Origin: Halothermothrix sp.
GTDB lineage: Bacteria; Bacillota; Halanaerobiia; DY22613
Reading direction: 5' to 3'
DNA length: 64,000 nucleotides
Assembly: GCA_016841825.1 (NCBI GenBank)
Contig: JAENYK010000008.1
Coordinates: forward strand, 1-64,000
Shown here: positions 46,827 to 60,069 of the stretch, piece by piece
How the letters are laid out: the number at the start of each line of letters is the position of its first letter
Numbering within the stretch: position 1 is the first letter of the stretch
Position numbers and translations under genes: made by a program
The notes under the pieces: model-generated
Told to the model about the DNA's origin: nothing
Database searches by the model: none
Seen by the model: only the letters and a program-made list of their open reading frames with translations

Positions 46827-47095
46827 CTTATCACCCCTTTAGTAATTTCCTAATATACTACTTTGATTTATAAAATTTATACTATTTTACTATCAAATAC
46901 AATTATATATCCTCTATCCACCCATTACAATAGTTTTTGCTCAAAATCAATATATTTTTATAATATTTACCATTGTAAACTTTAATAAATTGACATTTTT
47001 ATTAAAATAATCTATAAATTATTTTCTTGGCCCTTGTCAAATGGAAAACTTACATAAGTAACCCTGGTCATAAGAACCTCTTCTCATAAAATAGT

Positions 47096-47424
47096 TTAAG
47101 GTACACTTCTTCTCACCAATAGATTAGTTATTATATCCCAACCAATCAACAGACCGCCGAAAGCGAAAACTCCACCTCCAACAGTCCGTCCAATCATATA
47201 AGGTTTTATTATCGCCCGTACCCAAACAAAATCTAATCCTAAATATCTCCAAAGATATGCCTGAAAATTCCCGCTACAATTAGTGACCCTCCCATCAAAG
47301 CCAATACAAGGTTTAAAAAATAAAAAGCAATATTCCCTAATAATAAAGGATTCTCCCAGATATACTGAAAGAATCCTTTGCAGTTGCAAATTAAAATCAG
47401 AATAACAGTGTCAATCTCATTAAT
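47096..47424 (-). pseudogene. Frameshifted small membrane protein gene
   Basis: The minus strand holds two partly overlapping frames. The first, from ATT at 47424 behind GGGGG, reads a hydrophobic protein (FYFLNLVLALMGGSLIVAGIF) and stops at 47239. The second continues KPYMIGRTVGGGVFAFGGLLIGWDI to 47096, so a +1/-1 shift near 47240 would join them into one protein of about 105 residues with three hydrophobic segments. Neither frame has an ATG start. It is either a pseudogene or a sequencing-level shift. Family not recognised. Confidence 0.5.
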
Positions 47425-47477
47425 TGTCTATCCCCCATTTAAATTCTAGTAAACAAGGAACACCTGATAGTTTAAGA

Positions 47478-50400
47478 TCATTTTAAAACCCGATACACCT
47501 TTCCAACCACAGTTTGATAAAATCCAGCAGGATTCTCATGACTAAAATCTACCACAATATTTCTAATTTCTTCTTTACTTTCCTGTGGTAAGTAGATTAG
47601 CACTTTCTCTTCCTCCCCTGCATGTTCAAAAACAGCACTTGCATCAGTAATATTCAGTTGATACTTAATACTTTTCTTATCCAATGCTTTCTCCACAGTA
47701 TCCCGTAACTCAGTGAAAAAGTCTTTACCATCTGTCAATCTCAGAACTTTTAACTGATAATTGTCCCCATGGATTCCTGAAGATACTTCAAATGATGTTT
47801 TATACAGACCTAAAACCTCATCTTCTTCCCCCCGGCTACCTGATCCAGCAGCCAGGCTTTCCATCATCTTAGAGTAAGCTGTTAGAAGTAATTCTGTTGC
47901 CTGCGGATAATCACATTCAATAACATTTTCCACTTCATTTTTACTCAAAAATGGAGGCTTTTCCAAATGTAAAAATGGAATTTTATCATCAATATAGAAT
48001 GGGCAATCTTTGCCAGCGAAAGGATAGGAACCATAGATATACAACGTGTTATGCCAGACTCGAATTCCATAAGTGTAACGTACTCCTAAAATTGTAAAAT
48101 GCCCTGCCAACCCAGATTCAGTTATAGCTATATCGCCACCAAATACCCCCATATTTAAGATTGTCAAAGAGATGGCACCACTTAATCTAAACATAGAGGC
48201 AGATATGTTACCAGTTAAATCTCCTTCCAGATTAAATGGTGACCCATCCGGAAGTAGTTTAAAGTGTCCATTTGCTGCAAAACCTGTATCTTCAACCTTC
48301 ACATATCCTCTAACTATTGGATTAGGATTAATCATTTCCAGAATGAATAGACGCAGTTCTCCACTGGTTCCAAATTTTACTGCATTCATGGTAGTATCGA
48401 AAATTATCTCTAATGAGATAAGTCCAGCCAGAGTACTACTTTTCAAATCTACATAGAGTCTATTCCTCAAAGGCGTAATCCTGATATCCATAGAATAATC
48501 AGTCCAGCCCAGAGGTAGTTTACCGGCTATCTGTAGTGTTTCCGAACCTATCATGCCAAACTTTAATGAGGTCTCCCGACCCATAATGGTAAGTGAAGAA
48601 CTAATTCCAGTATTGGAGATGCTGATATTACCGGAGCCAGTAAAGATCAGAAAACCTGCCTCAATGCCACCTGATAGAGCAATCTTTTCATGACTCAATT
48701 CTCCTCCGACATTTTTCGGAGTTCTAAAATAGATCAAATTTTGCACATCTAACAGTGTAAAACTTCCATCAATTGCAAAACGATTCATGTCTGCAGCTAC
48801 AGTAGTCTCACCTGTAAAGAACGTCAATCCTGGAATGAAGAATTGAGTTTTATTCTTCCCATACAATTCAAAAGGAACATCTGGTGGATTTATTTTAACA
48901 GTTGCAATCAGATCAATGTTAAACAGGTTTTGAACACTTCCAGTAAGGTAAAATCCTATATCAAATTTCTTTCCCTGTAACATAATCAAACCAAAAGCTG
49001 CATCCAGATCAGTAAATTTGGTACTCCAGGTTCCCCTTAAGAACACAACCAATCCTTCATCTTCCTCTGTAATCGGTTTTGATTCATCTTGACGAGGTAA
49101 GATCTCCAAAAATTTCTTAGCTTTTATATTGTCTATATTAATATATTTGTAACCATCCTCTTTGATAAACTCCTCAGGTGTACTAATAATCCAATCGGCA
49201 GACATGGACAGACAGACGAAACCAGAAACATACTGTCCAGAACCAAAACGATATTCCACCGGAATCGACTTGATAAACTTGATAATATCAAAAAACTTAA
49301 ATCCATCCAACAAATACGCTACCAGTTGATAAGCAGAGGGCACCTTTACTCCTTCTGCTAACCCCAAAGTCTTGCTTCCTAATAGCTGACCAGTTTTAAG
49401 ATAGTTTGGCCCTATATCGAATTGCAAATTAAAATCTTTATAAACTTTCCTCGGATCAAGGGCAAATTTAGAATCTGTCAAAAACTTGACCAGATCGACC
49501 AACAAACTCCCAATCTCTTTGAGATTAAAACCTGGCTCTTTAAAGCCAAAAGATGATTGTAGGGTATTGTCCCCAATTCCATAGTAATCAATTCCCAATT
49601 TATCAAAAAACAGAGGTATAGGTATCGGGAAACCAGCTTGATAGAAGATAATAGTTAATAACTTATGAATTTGAATATTGTAATGATAGTCCCGCGGATT
49701 ACCAAAATATTTATATAAAGAGTCGTCTACTACTAAGCTCACCAATAATGATTCAATATCAAAGATATCAATATCAGCATCAATCCGTAACTTGAATAAC
49801 TGTCCAGCAAACATCTCACCAAAGGAAAACTGTCGTAGAGTAATCCCGGTAATCATCGGTGCAGGTGGAGTAATCATTAGCATCTTAACTCCTGGATTGG
49901 AAAATAATGAAGCATCAATACCCCCATCTGGGGTGATTACAATTTCAAAGTGGAATTCAGCTGGAACCCGCAAATCCATATAGTCAAGGAAGGTCTTCGG
50001 TAGTTTATTAACAATCGAAGCTATTTTGTTTAAAATCTCCACCACGACAGTTGGTAGTTGATTACCAAAGAATTCATTAATTTTGACGACGTTTAAAGTA
50101 CCATTTTCAATGAAATGTGGTGGATTACTCAAAGGTATCGAAAGTACGTCAGGCAATAGTTTTGCGAAATCAGTAAGTTGTGCGTTTTCAAGCAATTGTT
50201 TTAGAATATCTAATGGAATTCCCGGATCGTTATCAATGATAAAACCACCTTTTGCCGAGAAGCCTCCTTTTTGCAGATCTAGTCCTAAAGTTGGCTTTTC
50301 AATCTGGATAGAACCATATTTGCCATCTTTGCCGAGACAGATTGCCCAATACTTTTCTTTATCTTCAATAACAGCTATTGGAATTTTGGAGATGCTAATG

Positions 50401-52928
50401 GTAGCATCAGATTTGTCACCAATTTCACCTGCAAATTTCATTGCCAGGCACTCACTGGCTTTTGGTTTATCAGGTTGATATGTATTGAAAAGTACTATCT
50501 TAGGTTTATGATCCTCATCCTCACCAAAGAGATAGTTTAGTCTTGATGGTAGATAGAAATCGACTTCGATTTCGATGGTTACCGATTTTTTCTTTAACTT
50601 AAGTGCCAGATTACTGACCGCAACTTTGGCTGTACCCAGATCGAAAGCCTGTAATTCGCCAACTGCAGGTGTTTTCATGTCTGGGATGACAACTTCAAAA
50701 ATACTATCTTTTAAACTTAGAGAAACCTCTTCGGTTCCATCAATTTTTAAGCCTACATGCAGTCCTTCCCCGGGTAGAATACTGCCAATAAACTCTGGAA
50801 TCTTTGTCAATTTTAATTGAAAGTCTGATTCAAAATGCCATTTTTCTTTCTTTTCCAGACTAAGTTTCTCAATTCTAAACAACATCTCAGACCATTCCAC
50901 TGTATCACTATCAATCTGATATGGGATTGGAAGAGGTATATTTTTGATGACACCACTTCCTTCATCGGCCTCAAAACTGATACTAAATTGCTCTTTTTCA
51001 CCTGTTATCTTTAAAGTTCCCCCAATATCAATCAAATAAGATTTCTCTTCCTGAGAATCACTGGTCTCTATTAATTTAATCGCTCCTTTGGAACTAATCG
51101 ACCATTTATAGCTTTTGTTCTCCTGTTCTGCAAAATATAGTTTAAACGAAGAACTTTCCAGTCTCCCCAGATTCGCAAAATCAATATATGAATCAGTGTC
51201 CAGCTCAATCTCTAAAGACTTCTCTTCAGTATCAACGGTAACTTGACCTTTTTTCACTCCAATACCAACAAATTCATCTGGAAGCTGAATCTCTGGTGGC
51301 AAGAAGTCGTTGAGGGTTAATGACGTATCATCTGATGTCTCAAACGAACCAGCAAACTTCCATCCTTTAGCTTTTAACTCAGCGACCAGAGTTACATCCA
51401 CCTTATTATAAATAGATAATTTACCCGATAAACGTATCGCTTCTAGTGCATTGATATTTACTCCATCATGATTACCATATTTAAAATACAATCCCAGCTC
51501 CTTCATCTCCAGATTTAAAATAGGCAGAGTAATGTCACTGCGCAAAGCTGAATTCAAAGTAAATCCTACAGGTGATGTCTGCCCATTGAGATAAAAGAGT
51601 GAACAATCAACTTCAGGTAAATATAATGGCTGTCCCAATAAATTCTCTAGCATCTTAGTTAAATTAATCTTACTACCATGACTCAATTCAACGGTAAACT
51701 CTATATTTGGGAGAGCAGAAACCTGTACCAGAAGATCTCCTTTAACCGCTGTACCTGTAAGGCAAGCTCTTCCTTTAAGATCTGCTTTAACCTGGAGCGA
51801 ATCTTCTGCAGATGGAAGCATAACTGCAAAGTTGATATCAATCTCATTTATTTGCAATAAATCTGGGATTAGTTGATAATTGGTGTATTTATCATTCAAA
51901 GAGAAGGTACTATATATCTCAAGCAGACGGGCATTGGAAAGAGATACTTTAAGCCCAAGGTTGGCCAAAACAACTGCATCTAAACCCGGAAAATCTTTAG
52001 GAATCCATTCCGTCAAAGCAATATTACCCATTAATTTGGAGAACTTATCTAACGCTAATTCTGATAAATCTTTAGTGTCTGCCTCTAAAATGACCAGATC
52101 AGGACTAGTGCCATAAAAATCAGAATACAGAGGAAGAGTCAACTGACCATCTCCATAATTGTACTGAACGTCAGCCCGAAAACGATATAATGTAGTTGGT
52201 AAAACTTGATAATTCTGCTCACCTTCAAGAATCTGAAACAGACTCACTATCTGTAGATACAATGGTACACTCAACTCACCTAACTCAATAGCTTTAAACT
52301 CTCCAGTTTTTAAAGAGAAGCGAGGAACCCCCTTAAGAATATCTATAGCCCCTGTTACTGTAAAATTTCCTTCATTCAAAAAGACTTTTAACCACTGAAG
52401 TAATTCTGGCAACCTGATCTGTCCAGTAAATAATAGACCGTTAATTACCTCAGATTCGTACTTTGCATCATAAAAATAACCAGAATATTGTTTCTGAAGT
52501 TGAATATTCGAAGCTTCCAGCTCCGAAGGGAGCGAATTCAGAATAAATACAGCATTGTCATACTCAAAATAATCCACTGATTCTTCTTTAATCTCTGGAA
52601 AAGCTTCTGATAACTTAAAACCTGATTTGGCAATAACTAAATTAACTCGACACTGCGGAAAAGATTGCTCATCAATCCAGAATTCACCTGAAACTTGTAA
52701 ATCATTAAGCTTATAGAATTGATTAACTACTCCCCGGATAATTTTAATTTTTTCATTTTCCAATAGTGGTTTCGTCGTTTTCTGCAGTAATATACTGCCA
52801 TCCGCAAAATGGTTATTTATCAGTTTGCCGACAGGTGTGTCCAAAAAGTCTTTCCCGGTTATCGTCAATGACTGTTCCTGCTCATCCCACCCGTCGCATA
52901 GAATTTGATAAAGTTTTTGTAAATCCAT
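47478..52928 (-). CDS. Giant repetitive beta-rich protein of unknown function, 1816 residues
   Basis: The protein has no signal peptide or membrane helix and consists of short strand-rich modules, many of the type 'helix with L..LL, then P...LP, then three strands' (near residues 175, 433, 543 and 718). Later modules are Gly-rich strands such as SISNTGISSSLTIMG and GGDIAITESGLAGHF. It ends in a globular region (about 1650-1816). The plan resembles large uncharacterised proteins annotated with DUF6603-like repeats, but I cannot confirm membership. It lies 22 bp after a ComEC-like metallo-beta-lactamase protein, with which it should form an operon. Role unknown; it might be a cytosolic scaffold or a secreted shell by an unseen route. 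Confidence 0.85.
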   Translation of the reverse strand: MDLQKLYQILCDGWDEQEQSLTITGKDFLDTPVGKLINNHFADGSILLQKTTKPLLENEKIKIIRGVVNQFYKLNDLQVSGEFWIDEQSFPQCRVNLVIAKSGFKLSEAFPEIKEESVDYFEYDNAVFILNSLPSELEASNIQLQKQYSGYFYDAKYESEVINGLLFTGQIRLPELLQWLKVFLNEGNFTVTGAIDILKGVPRFSLKTGEFKAIELGELSVPLYLQIVSLFQILEGEQNYQVLPTTLYRFRADVQYNYGDGQLTLPLYSDFYGTSPDLVILEADTKDLSELALDKFSKLMGNIALTEWIPKDFPGLDAVVLANLGLKVSLSNARLLEIYSTFSLNDKYTNYQLIPDLLQINEIDINFAVMLPSAEDSLQVKADLKGRACLTGTAVKGDLLVQVSALPNIEFTVELSHGSKINLTKMLENLLGQPLYLPEVDCSLFYLNGQTSPVGFTLNSALRSDITLPILNLEMKELGLYFKYGNHDGVNINALEAIRLSGKLSIYNKVDVTLVAELKAKGWKFAGSFETSDDTSLTLNDFLPPEIQLPDEFVGIGVKKGQVTVDTEEKSLEIELDTDSYIDFANLGRLESSSFKLYFAEQENKSYKWSISSKGAIKLIETSDSQEEKSYLIDIGGTLKITGEKEQFSISFEADEGSGVIKNIPLPIPYQIDSDTVEWSEMLFRIEKLSLEKKEKWHFESDFQLKLTKIPEFIGSILPGEGLHVGLKIDGTEEVSLSLKDSIFEVVIPDMKTPAVGELQAFDLGTAKVAVSNLALKLKKKSVTIEIEVDFYLPSRLNYLFGEDEDHKPKIVLFNTYQPDKPKASECLAMKFAGEIGDKSDATISISKIPIAVIEDKEKYWAICLGKDGKYGSIQIEKPTLGLDLQKGGFSAKGGFIIDNDPGIPLDILKQLLENAQLTDFAKLLPDVLSIPLSNPPHFIENGTLNVVKINEFFGNQLPTVVVEILNKIASIVNKLPKTFLDYMDLRVPAEFHFEIVITPDGGIDASLFSNPGVKMLMITPPAPMITGITLRQFSFGEMFAGQLFKLRIDADIDIFDIESLLVSLVVDDSLYKYFGNPRDYHYNIQIHKLLTIIFYQAGFPIPIPLFFDKLGIDYYGIGDNTLQSSFGFKEPGFNLKEIGSLLVDLVKFLTDSKFALDPRKVYKDFNLQFDIGPNYLKTGQLLGSKTLGLAEGVKVPSAYQLVAYLLDGFKFFDIIKFIKSIPVEYRFGSGQYVSGFVCLSMSADWIISTPEEFIKEDGYKYINIDNIKAKKFLEILPRQDESKPITEEDEGLVVFLRGTWSTKFTDLDAAFGLIMLQGKKFDIGFYLTGSVQNLFNIDLIATVKINPPDVPFELYGKNKTQFFIPGLTFFTGETTVAADMNRFAIDGSFTLLDVQNLIYFRTPKNVGGELSHEKIALSGGIEAGFLIFTGSGNISISNTGISSSLTIMGRETSLKFGMIGSETLQIAGKLPLGWTDYSMDIRITPLRNRLYVDLKSSTLAGLISLEIIFDTTMNAVKFGTSGELRLFILEMINPNPIVRGYVKVEDTGFAANGHFKLLPDGSPFNLEGDLTGNISASMFRLSGAISLTILNMGVFGGDIAITESGLAGHFTILGVRYTYGIRVWHNTLYIYGSYPFAGKDCPFYIDDKIPFLHLEKPPFLSKNEVENVIECDYPQATELLLTAYSKMMESLAAGSGSRGEEDEVLGLYKTSFEVSSGIHGDNYQLKVLRLTDGKDFFTELRDTVEKALDKKSIKYQLNITDASAVFEHAGEEEKVLIYLPQESKEEIRNIVVDFSHENPAGFYQTVVGKVYRVLK

Positions 52929-52950
52929 AGGATAGTCCTCCTTTCTTATT

Positions 52951-53901
52951 TTAATAATCTATCAGGCCACCCGGATATTTCTTAGCTTTTTTCCGGTCAC
53001 CTCTAATTCGATACCCACCCGTAGAATCTACTTCGACTTTCAGATAGGTTCCCAGGTTAAATCTTCCACTACCATACCACTTATCTTGAAATCCGGTAAT
53101 ATTCAGGGAAACGAAGTCAGTATTTATTTCTCCCAACAGTGCATAAACACTCACCCCATTGGTAATCAAGTAATTAATTGTTTCAGTAATATATGAACCT
53201 CCTAAACCACTAATTATACAAATAGGCTTCTTATCAACAATATAATTAATTAAATTCAAATTGTTATATATATTTTTTTTGCTACCATGATGGGGTAATT
53301 TAATAACTGTAAAATTATTCTTTTGCTGAACTAATTTCTTCGGAAAAGTCTCTTTCGTAATATCTGCTAGACCTAGATAAACAAAAGTTCCACAACATAT
53401 TACTGGCATTAATGAGTAGTGATTTTCATCATCTGTGTAATGTTTATTAATAACAGGATGATAAATATACATCTTTAAACTCTGGGAATTTAAAATGCAA
53501 CGTGAATTTGTAATAAATGAATCCGAGTTTTGGATAGTCACAATATTTTTTACTGCTTCTACTGTAGCTTCCCTGGTCGACTTTTTAGCATTTTTAGTTA
53601 ACCCGAAGACCAGCTTGAATTTCTTATCCCCCAACGAACCCCCATAATGATCGTCGTGCCAATGGGTATATAAAATAAAATCCAGTTTATCCTTTACTTC
53701 TTTGAAAAATTCGTTAAACTGCTGCTTGTCATATTTCGTATCACTTCCACAATCAATAAAAAATGATTTAGCTGTATTGTTTACATTCATCTCACCCAGG
53801 CATAGATCACCATATCCATTATTCAAATTACAGCCCAGGTGATTTAATGACACTACCTGTTTTCCTGAATCAAAATTAACATTTTTAAATACATGTTCCA
53901 T
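52951..53901 (-). CDS. Free-standing ComEC-like metallo-beta-lactamase protein
   Basis: The 316-residue protein has the metal motif HWHDDH (His80, His82, Asp84, His85 in YTHWHDDHYGG), Asp180 (YLGLADI, in place of the TGD of ComEC) and KLPHHGSKK (His204, His205), all in the order of the ComEC C-terminal hydrolase domain. No signal peptide or membrane segment. It is the first gene of a two-gene operon with the 1816-residue protein. The likely chemistry is hydrolysis of a phosphodiester or other ester; the substrate might be a nucleic acid end or a modified group on the giant protein. Confidence 0.85.
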   Translation of the reverse strand: MEHVFKNVNFDSGKQVVSLNHLGCNLNNGYGDLCLGEMNVNNTAKSFFIDCGSDTKYDKQQFNEFFKEVKDKLDFILYTHWHDDHYGGSLGDKKFKLVFGLTKNAKKSTREATVEAVKNIVTIQNSDSFITNSRCILNSQSLKMYIYHPVINKHYTDDENHYSLMPVICCGTFVYLGLADITKETFPKKLVQQKNNFTVIKLPHHGSKKNIYNNLNLINYIVDKKPICIISGLGGSYITETINYLITNGVSVYALLGEINTDFVSLNITGFQDKWYGSGRFNLGTYLKVEVDSTGGYRIRGDRKKAKKYPGGLIDY

Positions 53902-54107: not shown

Positions 54108-54145
54108 TTAAAAAAAAATAACCGTTCTCACACTGAACGGTTATT
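54108..54145 (-). terminator. Terminator of the nadD-yqeK-LCP-rsfS operon
   Basis: AATAACCGTTC and GAACGGTTATT form a perfect 11 bp stem with a 7-base loop; minus strand ends in nine T residues. Confidence 0.9.
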
Positions 54146-54178
54146 TTGATAGTTCTATATTATTTCGAATTGGTTTAC

Positions 54179-57268: not shown

Positions 57269-58210
57269 TTAATACTGCTTACGGGTCACATCTAACAGTT
57301 CATTTCTCAACAGATTCAAAGCCCGAGTAATCTTCTGTTTCTCCTTCAAAACAGGTTTAAACAGATCGCCAACCTCCTCAATTCTTTTACCAATTGTCTG
57401 CAAATTATACATGTCCGGCTTCAGAGATGAATTTACTTCATCCCACAGTACAGGTGTTGATATTGGTGCTTTAGGTTGAGGACGAACACTATATACCCCA
57501 GTAATAGTCTTACCTTTAATATTCTGCAGATAATCCACATATACCTTTCCGGCTCTATCCTTAACTTTGCGATCATAAATGGTAGCTTTATCTGGAATCA
57601 CCTGAACGACAATCCATCCAACCAACTCTACAAACTCCTGAAGCTCTTCATAGCTGTAGATCGGTTCCACAGGAACATAGATATGTAAACCAGTAGCCCC
57701 AGATGTCTTGGGATAATGTTTTACCTTTAAATCTGTTAAAACTTTGTGAATTAATTGAGCCACCATAATTGTATCCTCAAATGTCGCTCCTTCAGCAGGG
57801 TCTAAGTCAAAGATCGCCCAATCTGGATGATCCAATGTCTGAACTCTCGAAAACCAGGGATGCAGCTCGATGGCTCCTAAATTGACCATAAAAACCAGTG
57901 TTTCTATTCCAGAACCAATAATATAATTAATATCATCCTCCCTCTCTTTAGAGTAGATTCTCTGGGTCTTAATATAAGGGGGAGTCTGGTTTTCAGCTAG
58001 ATGTTTATGATAAAACATCTCCCCAGTTATCCCTTCCGGATAACGACTCATCACCAAAGGTCGATCCTGGATATAGGGTAGAATCAGACTACTCATCTCA
58101 ATATAATACTTAAGTAAATCACCTTTTCGAAATCCATCCCCGGGCCAGTAGATCTTTTCAAGATTGCTAACCCTCACCTGATTACCATTGATTTGCAAAA
58201 ATTGGTCCAC
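57269..58210 (-). CDS. LigD polymerase-domain protein (non-homologous end joining)
   Basis: The 313-residue protein is a stand-alone LigD primase-polymerase domain with the metal pair FDLDPAEG (Asp, Asp) and the YDRKVKDRAG-type motif. It fills gaps and adds ribonucleotides at ends. The bacterial LigD domains are separate here: ligase at 58289, polymerase here, and no visible phosphoesterase domain. The gene is last of the SASP-Ku-ligase-polymerase set, and a G-U-rich hairpin (58244-58277) lies between ligase and polymerase. Confidence 0.93.
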   Translation of the reverse strand: MDQFLQINGNQVRVSNLEKIYWPGDGFRKGDLLKYYIEMSSLILPYIQDRPLVMSRYPEGITGEMFYHKHLAENQTPPYIKTQRIYSKEREDDINYIIGSGIETLVFMVNLGAIELHPWFSRVQTLDHPDWAIFDLDPAEGATFEDTIMVAQLIHKVLTDLKVKHYPKTSGATGLHIYVPVEPIYSYEELQEFVELVGWIVVQVIPDKATIYDRKVKDRAGKVYVDYLQNIKGKTITGVYSVRPQPKAPISTPVLWDEVNSSLKPDMYNLQTIGKRIEEVGDLFKPVLKEKQKITRALNLLRNELLDVTRKQY

Positions 58211-58243
58211 TTTCGCTACCTCCCATAACTATCTCTACCTGTA

Positions 58244-58277
58244 AGAAGAACCCATCTTGATAATCAAGTGAGTTCTT
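58244..58277 (-). terminator. Intercistronic hairpin between ligase and polymerase genes
   Basis: AAGAACTCACTTGA pairs with TCAAGATGGGTTCTT (G-U pairs) on the minus strand, no T-run. It may reduce but not stop transcription. Confidence 0.4.
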
Positions 58278-58288
58278 AATAACTAAAA

Positions 58289-59227
58289 TTAACTCAATAT
58301 ACATTCTTGTGGATTATCCCTGGTAAAACCTCTAATGACTGGGGCTCTCATTTGAAAATCATTGGACCACTCCATAAACTCTACTTTCACTGTCAACAAA
58401 GGCTGAATCCAATGAGTGGTTACCCCATATAATCTGGGAGGATTAATAAAAGGTGCAGCCTTTATCTCAAACTCCAGTAAATGAATCGAAAGAAGTTTTA
58501 AATTTTCAGAAGTCAAACCTGTAGCGGCATTACCAATATAGTGAAAATCACCATCTAGATAAGCTCCCATTAGCAGAGAACTTAGACGCCTTTCTTTTAT
58601 GGTGTACCCACCCACCACAGCAATCAGATCTTTACTGGTCTTAATCTTAAGCCAATGGTCTGTCTTTTGTCCGATAAGGTATGGACTATCTTTTTTCTTG
58701 GCTACAATCCCTTCCATCTCCTGTTCCTCAATCGCCCGAAACAGGGCAATTCCACTGGGAAAATCATCAATAATCTGAAAATAATCATGAGGGATAGCTA
58801 TCTCTCGTAATAATTCCAGACGCTGAGTCAGAGGTTTAGTTGTCAAATCTTGCCCATTAAGCGAGATAAGGTCAAAAACTACATATGTAGCTGGGATCTT
58901 CTCCGCCGCTACTTTGATTGCTAATTCGTCTGTTTTCAAATCCCGCTTAAGAATCCCTGAGAAACTGGGTTTACCATCCTTCAGTACGACCATCTCTCCA
59001 TCTAAAATAGCTTCCTTACTGTCAATGTAATCTGACAAATTTTCAAAATCAGGATATACATGAGATCTGGCTCGAAGTTTACGATTCTGTAAACGAACCT
59101 GTTTCTGATCGATAAATGCCACAATTCTTACCCCGTCCCACTTTACCTGATACAGATAATCTTCCGAATCAAAGGGATTACTGGCAGAACGGGGTTCCAT
59201 AGGTTTTAAATGGCCATATTCTATCAT
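58289..59227 (-). CDS. ATP-dependent DNA ligase (LigD ligase-domain protein)
   Basis: The 312-residue ligase has the nucleotidyl motif YQVKWDGVR (catalytic Lys about residue 29), ILDGEMVV, and KIKTSKDL, plus the OB domain. It seals breaks held by Ku. Length is the ligase domain of LigD only. It is five bases downstream of the Ku gene. Confidence 0.93.
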   Translation of the reverse strand: MIEYGHLKPMEPRSASNPFDSEDYLYQVKWDGVRIVAFIDQKQVRLQNRKLRARSHVYPDFENLSDYIDSKEAILDGEMVVLKDGKPSFSGILKRDLKTDELAIKVAAEKIPATYVVFDLISLNGQDLTTKPLTQRLELLREIAIPHDYFQIIDDFPSGIALFRAIEEQEMEGIVAKKKDSPYLIGQKTDHWLKIKTSKDLIAVVGGYTIKERRLSSLLMGAYLDGDFHYIGNAATGLTSENLKLLSIHLLEFEIKAAPFINPPRLYGVTTHWIQPLLTVKVEFMEWSNDFQMRAPVIRGFTRDNPQECILS

Positions 59228-59232
59228 TTAAC

Positions 59233-60069
59233 TTATGTAGCCACCTTTTCAGATTCTTTCTCCTCAATCTTTGCCTGTTCTTTATCTCTTTCCTTTTGAG
59301 CTGCCTCCAGACTAGCTTTGAGTGCATCCATCAGATCCACAACCTTACCAGAAACCATCCGTTCCGGAATTTTCACTTCCTGACCTTCTATCTTCTGCCT
59401 GATGATCTTCAATAACTCTTCCCGATATTCATCAGTATATTTCTCTGGAGCAAAATCAGTAGATAGATTAGAGATTAACTCTTTAGCCATGTTTAGTTCA
59501 TTTTCCGAAACCTTTATCTTATTTACCAGATCTCCGATTTTCAAATCGGCACTATCTCGCACTTCTGCCGGAAAGAACATTGTCTCCAGACAGATAGTTC
59601 CATTATCCAGGACTCGGATACAGGCCAGACTTTCTTTATTGCGAATAGTAATCTTTGCCACCGCAACCTTACTGGTCTCTTTCATCGCCTGACTTAACAG
59701 AATATACGCTTTCTCGCCACCCTCATTTGGAGAAAGAAAATAACTCTTACTATAATAGATGGGATCTATATCTTCTAAATTCACAAAATCCACAATATCT
59801 ATCGTTCGGGTAGAAGCTACAGGAATATTGTCAAAATCCTCATCTTTAAGAATCACATATTTTCCCTTCTCATACTCATAACCACTGATAATGTTGTCAC
59901 TGTCTACCACCTGATCACATTTGGGACAATACTTCTGATAAGTAATCGGTGTATGACAGGCGTCATGTAGTTGGCGAAAATGCAAACTCTCCTTTGCTGT
60001 AGCTGTGTACATCTTAATAGGAACATTGACCAAACCAAAACTAATCGAACCTTTCCATAGGGTTCTCAT
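59233..60069 (-). CDS. Ku protein, DNA end-binding
   Basis: The 278-residue Ku homologue begins RTLWKGSISFGLVNVPIKMY and has a core beta-barrel and a lysine/glutamate-rich tail (SEKVAT end) that is the usual LigD-contacting tail in bacteria. A CPKC-like pair is present in YCPKCDQVV. It recruits the ligase and polymerase encoded downstream. A 34 bp gap separates it from a SASP gene. Confidence 0.95.
   Translation of the reverse strand: MRTLWKGSISFGLVNVPIKMYTATAKESLHFRQLHDACHTPITYQKYCPKCDQVVDSDNIISGYEYEKGKYVILKDEDFDNIPVASTRTIDIVDFVNLEDIDPIYYSKSYFLSPNEGGEKAYILLSQAMKETSKVAVAKITIRNKESLACIRVLDNGTICLETMFFPAEVRDSADLKIGDLVNKIKVSENELNMAKELISNLSTDFAPEKYTDEYREELLKIIRQKIEGQEVKIPERMVSGKVVDLMDALKASLEAAQKERDKEQAKIEEKESEKVAT

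What the first reader, a model, noticed from the sequence alone, without database searches (positions are those of the whole stretch)
47478..53901. Two-gene operon: a 1816-residue repetitive beta protein with a ComEC-like metallo-beta-lactamase
A free-standing hydrolase with the ComEC metal motifs (HWHDDH, LGLAD, LPHHGS) is followed 22 bp later by a giant protein made of repeated helix-plus-strand units with no export signal. The window also has comEC itself 1.3 kb past the far end of this operon, so the free hydrolase may be a paralogue adapted to a new partner. I do not know a described system with this pairing.
Basis: partly seen in the sequence, partly recalled or inferred. Interest (0 to 1): 0.75.

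Follow-up and report, generated by a model that had tools for sequence, protein, structure and literature searches.

The report
Hydrolase gene paired with giant protein
A small metal-dependent hydrolase gene sits directly in front of a gene for a giant protein, and the giant proves to be a distant relative of the uncharacterised DUF6603 giants, whose genes in other bacteria and archaea follow one of many interchangeable enzymes, sometimes the same kind of hydrolase.

Summary
In detail: a 316-aa ComEC-type metallo-beta-lactamase (MBL) gene (52951-53901, -) is followed 22 bp later by a 1816-aa gene (47478-52928, -). The giant has no significant Pfam, NCBIfam, PADLOC or PDB hit, and its own sequence found no homologue in its class (59 genomes), a 398-genome phylum sample, plasmids or phages. 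Residues 279-655 are nevertheless clearly homologous to the N-terminal half of long DUF6603 proteins (74.9 bits, controls at most 7.5; HHalign E 1e-12). The DUF6603 core itself was not detected. Of 11 long DUF6603 giants with readable upstream DNA, four (Bacteroidota, Streptomyces, Embleya) have a ComEC-type MBL gene directly upstream on the same strand, as here. Across 46 DUF6603 loci the upstream gene is highly variable (subtilase, trypsin-like, PhoD, lipase, M23, DUF4135, MBL), while the downstream gene is one family in 45 of 47. The pair therefore looks like a reduced, diverged member of an apparently undescribed "interchangeable enzyme plus giant scaffold" operon type. Function is inferred only: the giant probably holds or controls the hydrolase, perhaps in a conflict role. 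The nearby comEC reflects conserved gene order; the hydrolase is not its close paralogue.

The parts
52951..53901 (-). P0002, 316-aa ComEC-type MBL-fold hydrolase, first gene of the pair
53647..53664 (-). HWHDDH metal motif (residues 80-85)
53362..53376 (-). LGLAD motif (residues 176-180), place of the bridging Asp
53281..53298 (-). LPHHGS motif (residues 202-207)
52937..52944 (-). AAAGGAGG ribosome-binding site of the giant gene, inside the 22-bp gap
   Evidence: read
47478..52928 (-). P0001, 1816-aa giant protein
50964..52094 (-). Giant residues 279-655: homologous to the N-terminal region of long DUF6603 proteins
   Evidence: HMMER 74.9 bits, HHalign E 1.3e-12
48096..48416 (-). Giant residues 1505-1611: weak, not significant, but collinear match to part of the DUF6603 core; uncertain
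   Evidence: HHalign E 0.08-0.3
48498..48779 (-). Internal repeat copy 1 (residues 1384-1477)
48006..48281 (-). Internal repeat copy 2 (residues 1550-1641)
54115..54147 (-). Terminator-like hairpin after rsfS, separating the pair from the upstream housekeeping operon
   Evidence: 13 pairs plus T run

Best explanation
The two genes form one operon encoding a hydrolase and its giant scaffold. The giant is a diverged relative of long DUF6603 proteins. In DUF6603 operons the gene directly upstream is an exchangeable enzyme; here, as in four long DUF6603 operons, that enzyme is a ComEC-type MBL hydrolase, most likely a metal-dependent phosphodiesterase or nuclease. Proposed mechanism: the giant binds, shields or positions the hydrolase and lets it act under some condition, probably in a conflict with phage, plasmid or competitor; the giant is the constant part and the enzyme the variable part. 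Shown: gene order, homology of the giant over about 375 residues, intact metal motifs, recurrence of MBL plus long giant in other phyla, variability of the upstream gene. Inferred: co-transcription, physical interaction, nuclease activity, conflict role.
For: Giant homologous to long DUF6603 proteins: 74.9 bits against at most 7.5 for reversed P0001 and other window ORFs; HHalign E 1.3e-10 with 7 and 1.3e-12 with 12 relatives. ComEC-type MBL directly upstream of long DUF6603 giants in L057, L059, L072, L073, far above expectation. Upstream slot in more than 20 unrelated clusters, 28 of 46 within 60 bp, downstream gene one family in 45 of 47; enzymes identified. Similar giants with different enzymes. 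Subtilase and trypsin types share a C-terminal domain. P0002 nearest to defence-associated MBL profiles.
Against: The DUF6603 core is not detected in the giant and the conserved downstream partners are absent from the window. P0002 does not group with the four DUF6603-linked MBLs, though its branch is extremely long, and lacks the docking domain seen in other slot enzymes. The exact pair is known from one genome. No structure, expression or activity data.
Confidence: 0.55

Rival explanations
1. Intracellular anti-phage defence of the gated-nuclease kind: the MBL is a latent DNase and the giant is its sensor or inhibitor, replacing the protease partner seen in Hachiman, Avs, Lamassu and DRT systems.
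For: Best profile matches of P0002 are LmuA, RT-associated MBL and Avs1a; MBL upstream of its partner is the order reported for nuclease-protease pairs (PMC12799240); no export signals.
Against: No ATPase, protease or sensor domain recognisable in the giant; P0002 is a compact MBL and whether it has gating insertions was not tested; slot enzymes of DUF6603 operons include lipase and M23 types that are atypical of such systems.
Confidence: 0.25
2. Effector-delivery or polymorphic-toxin-like system: the giant is a carrier or cage and the hydrolase its cargo, acting outside the producing cell.
For: Exchangeable hydrolases (protease, lipase, phosphatase, M23, MBL) before a constant giant; a few loci lie near baseplate, tail-collar-like or S74 proteins.
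Against: No delivery machinery, immunity gene or secretion signal in the window locus; giants match no PHROG or PDB family.
Confidence: 0.2
3. Lipid-related: the giant is a bridge-like, groove-forming lipid carrier and the MBL acts on lipid phosphodiesters.
For: Large beta-rich repetitive look of the sequence; some MBL-fold enzymes act on lipids (own knowledge).
Against: No sequence match to any such family; structure prediction failed; P0002 is of ComEC/nuclease type.
Confidence: 0.08
4. The two genes are chance neighbours, or the hydrolase is a comEC paralogue serving DNA uptake.
For: comEA and comEC lie 0.65 and 1.3 kb beyond the pair; the exact pair is seen in one genome only.
Against: The arrangement recurs in four long DUF6603 loci; comEC is near rsfS in class relatives without the pair; P0002 does not group with ComEC.
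Confidence: 0.08

Closest known systems
DUF6603 (PF20248) giant proteins, long type with N-terminal extension
   Same: About 375 residues of the giant are homologous to the extension; similar size; no export signal; enzyme gene directly upstream, MBL in 4 of 11 assessable long loci.
   Different: The DUF6603 core is not detectable and the conserved downstream genes are missing from the window.
ComEC/Rec2 MBL domain and free-standing ComEC-like hydrolases
   Same: HxHxDH, D and HHGS motifs in the same order.
   Different: No membrane part, GHP motif missing, very long branch.
Nuclease-protease pairs of Hachiman, AVAST, Lamassu and DRT (PMC12799240)
   Same: Small MBL encoded directly upstream of a larger partner; P0002's best profile matches are LmuA and RT-associated MBL.
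   Different: The partner is a DUF6603-related giant, with no protease fusion or defence core gene recognised.

Membership tests
DUF6603 (PF20248) | Match to the Pfam core model | tested here: not met
   No match in the genome at E up to 10; hmmscan none; own 13-sequence core profile not significant
DUF6603 (PF20248) | Homology to the N-terminal region of long DUF6603 proteins | tested here: met
   74.9 bits, controls at most 7.5; HHalign E 1.3e-12
DUF6603 operons | Enzyme gene directly upstream on the same strand | tested here: met
   MBL, 22 bp; same slot in L057, L059, L072, L073
DUF6603 operons | Conserved downstream gene family | tested here: not met
   No match among window ORFs or in the giant; 45 of 47 DUF6603 loci have it
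MBL-fold ComEC-type hydrolases | HxHxDH, Asp and HHGS motifs | tested here: met
MBL-fold ComEC-type hydrolases | Nuclease activity | not testable with these tools
   needs purified protein
Nuclease-protease defence pairs | Protease domain in the partner | tested here: not met
   No Pfam, NCBIfam or PADLOC domain in the giant
Phage tail or S-layer proteins | Match to a known tail or surface-layer family | tested here: not met

The most novel reading that the evidence does not exclude
DUF6603-type giants are the constant scaffolds of an undescribed conflict system that spans bacterial and archaeal phyla and has an exchangeable enzyme slot; the window holds a minimal two-gene version in which an MBL hydrolase and a giant without a recognisable core are sufficient.
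Probability: 0.35. Interest if true: 0.85.

Novelty: new variant of a known kind. Interest (0 to 1): 0.6.

Why it matters
DUF6603 is known only as a domain of unknown function and no paper in the searched library names it. That its operons keep a constant giant and a constant downstream neighbour while swapping the enzyme in front gives a first testable idea of what these giants do. The window's pair is the smallest version to test, and shows that the giant family reaches beyond what the Pfam core model sees.

Tried and rejected
Pattern scans of genome contigs and viral contigs with P0001, a piece of it, and P0002 found no close relatives. Alignment A2 used artificially varied copies of P0002 only to generate search patterns; no evidence rests on it. 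tblastn in plasmids and phages found nothing for either protein. AlphaFold2 without an alignment gave unusable models, so no fold search was made. Fusion of the conserved downstream DUF6603 partners into the giant's C-terminal part was tested and rejected. A weak hit in G235 (E 0.004 over 51 positions) was taken as chance. Phage-tail, S-layer and comEC-paralogue readings were rejected. A first comparison with a cruder alignment gave only E 0.002, and single giants alone do not detect P0001: the homology needs the profile.

Full report
Observation. A strong terminator-like hairpin follows rsfS upstream, so the pair is likely its own transcription unit. P0002 has HWHDDH, LGLAD and LPHHGS in MBL order and aligns with ComEC-like hydrolases, but lacks their GHP motif. 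Its best profile matches are defence-associated MBLs (LmuA 2.4e-12, RT-associated MBL 1.3e-9, Avs1a 2e-6 to 5e-5).

The giant alone. P0001 has no match in Pfam, NCBIfam or PADLOC, and only chance-level ones in PHROGs and PDB. HMMER-scored whole-genome searches found no homologue in 398 genomes of the phylum or 59 of the class. Plasmids and phages gave none by tblastn. Viral contigs and 84,980 species genomes gave none either, but by exact short-peptide patterns, which are insensitive. Internal repetition is present but weak.

DUF6603. The Pfam core model does not match this genome or 299 genomes sampled from the phylum. Sampling Bacteroidota and plasmids gave about 50 DUF6603 loci. Twelve are 'long' giants (1359-1841 aa) with a large region N-terminal of the core. 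P0001 aligns with that region. With seven long giants HHalign gave score 98.9, E 1.3e-10; with twelve, score 116, E 1.3e-12. HMMER with the twelve-member profile, built without P0001, gave 74.9 bits over P0001 279-653; reversed P0001 and all other window ORFs gave at most 7.5 bits. In HHalign about 75 unrelated ORFs of at least 600 aa scored at most 28.9, and reversed or shuffled P0001 at most about 33. Single giants do not detect P0001, so the homology rests on the profile. A weak match of the core around P0001 1505-1611 recurs collinearly but is not significant, so membership in PF20248 itself is not claimed.

The pairing elsewhere. In four long DUF6603 loci the gene directly upstream on the same strand is a ComEC-type MBL: L057 (gap 10 bp), L059 (overlap 11), L072 from Streptomyces clavuligerus pSCL4 (gap 28) and L073 from an Embleya plasmid (overlap 43). 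That is 4 of 11 long loci with readable upstream DNA and none of about 35 others (Fisher p 0.002). Taking the 19 MBL genes of this genome among roughly 4,800 genes (my estimate), 0.04 would be expected in 11 loci (p about 1e-7), and over all 46 loci p is 4e-5. The long/short split was made after seeing the data. The four MBLs group together, three of them with strong support, across Bacteroidota and Actinomycetota. P0002 does not join them, but it is an extremely long branch and its place is unsure.

A variable enzyme slot. Over the DUF6603 loci the downstream neighbour is one family in 45 of 47, while the upstream neighbours fall into more than 20 unrelated clusters, 28 of 46 within 60 bp. 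Identified ones are subtilases, trypsin-like peptidases, PhoD-like phosphatases, a class 3 lipase, an M23 peptidase, DUF4135 proteins and the MBLs. Fairly similar giants have different enzymes (L141 and L142, L055 and L057, L061 and L123). The subtilase and trypsin types, unrelated folds, share a C-terminal domain of about 130 aa, which suggests a common docking part; P0002 and the other MBLs lack it. Loosely spaced upstream genes are probably not part of the operon.

comEC. In two class relatives (L149, L151) rsfS, leuS and comEA-comEC lie together without the pair (leuS named from its N-terminal sequence). The proximity of comEC here is therefore inherited gene order, and P0002 is not close to the window's ComEC in the tree.

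Mechanism. The most economical reading is that the giant is a scaffold or carrier that controls the adjacent enzyme, here a metal-dependent phosphodiesterase or nuclease. The exchange of hydrolases in front of a constant giant resembles conflict systems in which effectors are swapped, and MBL nucleases are known effectors held inactive until a partner activates them (PMC12799240). Neither activity, interaction nor a conflict role is shown. The DUF6603 core and the conserved downstream genes are missing from this locus, so it may be reduced, or the missing parts may lie elsewhere in the genome, which I could not search further.

Verdict. Real, recurrent in architecture, and an unusual outlier of an uncharacterised giant-protein family; function unproven.

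Noticed in passing
L061, L063, L126 (subtilase type) and L112, L120, L121, L130 (trypsin type): C-terminal ~130 aa of the gene upstream of DUF6603: Two unrelated protease folds share a homologous C-terminal domain with no Pfam match; it may dock different enzymes to the DUF6603 system.
   Followed up: partly
L055, L140: gene directly upstream of a DUF6603 giant: A DUF4135 protein (a domain of unknown function in Pfam) occupies the enzyme slot.
   Followed up: no
L068 4802-10789 (G555): A 1995-aa ORF matches the DUF6603 core only weakly (E 6.5e-4) and does not align with the long giants; nature unknown.
   Followed up: no
L037 6455-10972: A ComEC-type MBL follows a 265-aa ORF in a series of same-strand genes of unclear function, possibly another defence-like locus.
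   Followed up: no
window 57269-60069: Ku-like and LigD-like polymerase and ligase ORFs side by side, an apparent bacterial non-homologous end-joining set (by inspection only).
   Followed up: no
window 46830-47477: About 650 bp between the giant and comEA hold no ORF of 100 aa or more; not analysed further.
   Followed up: no
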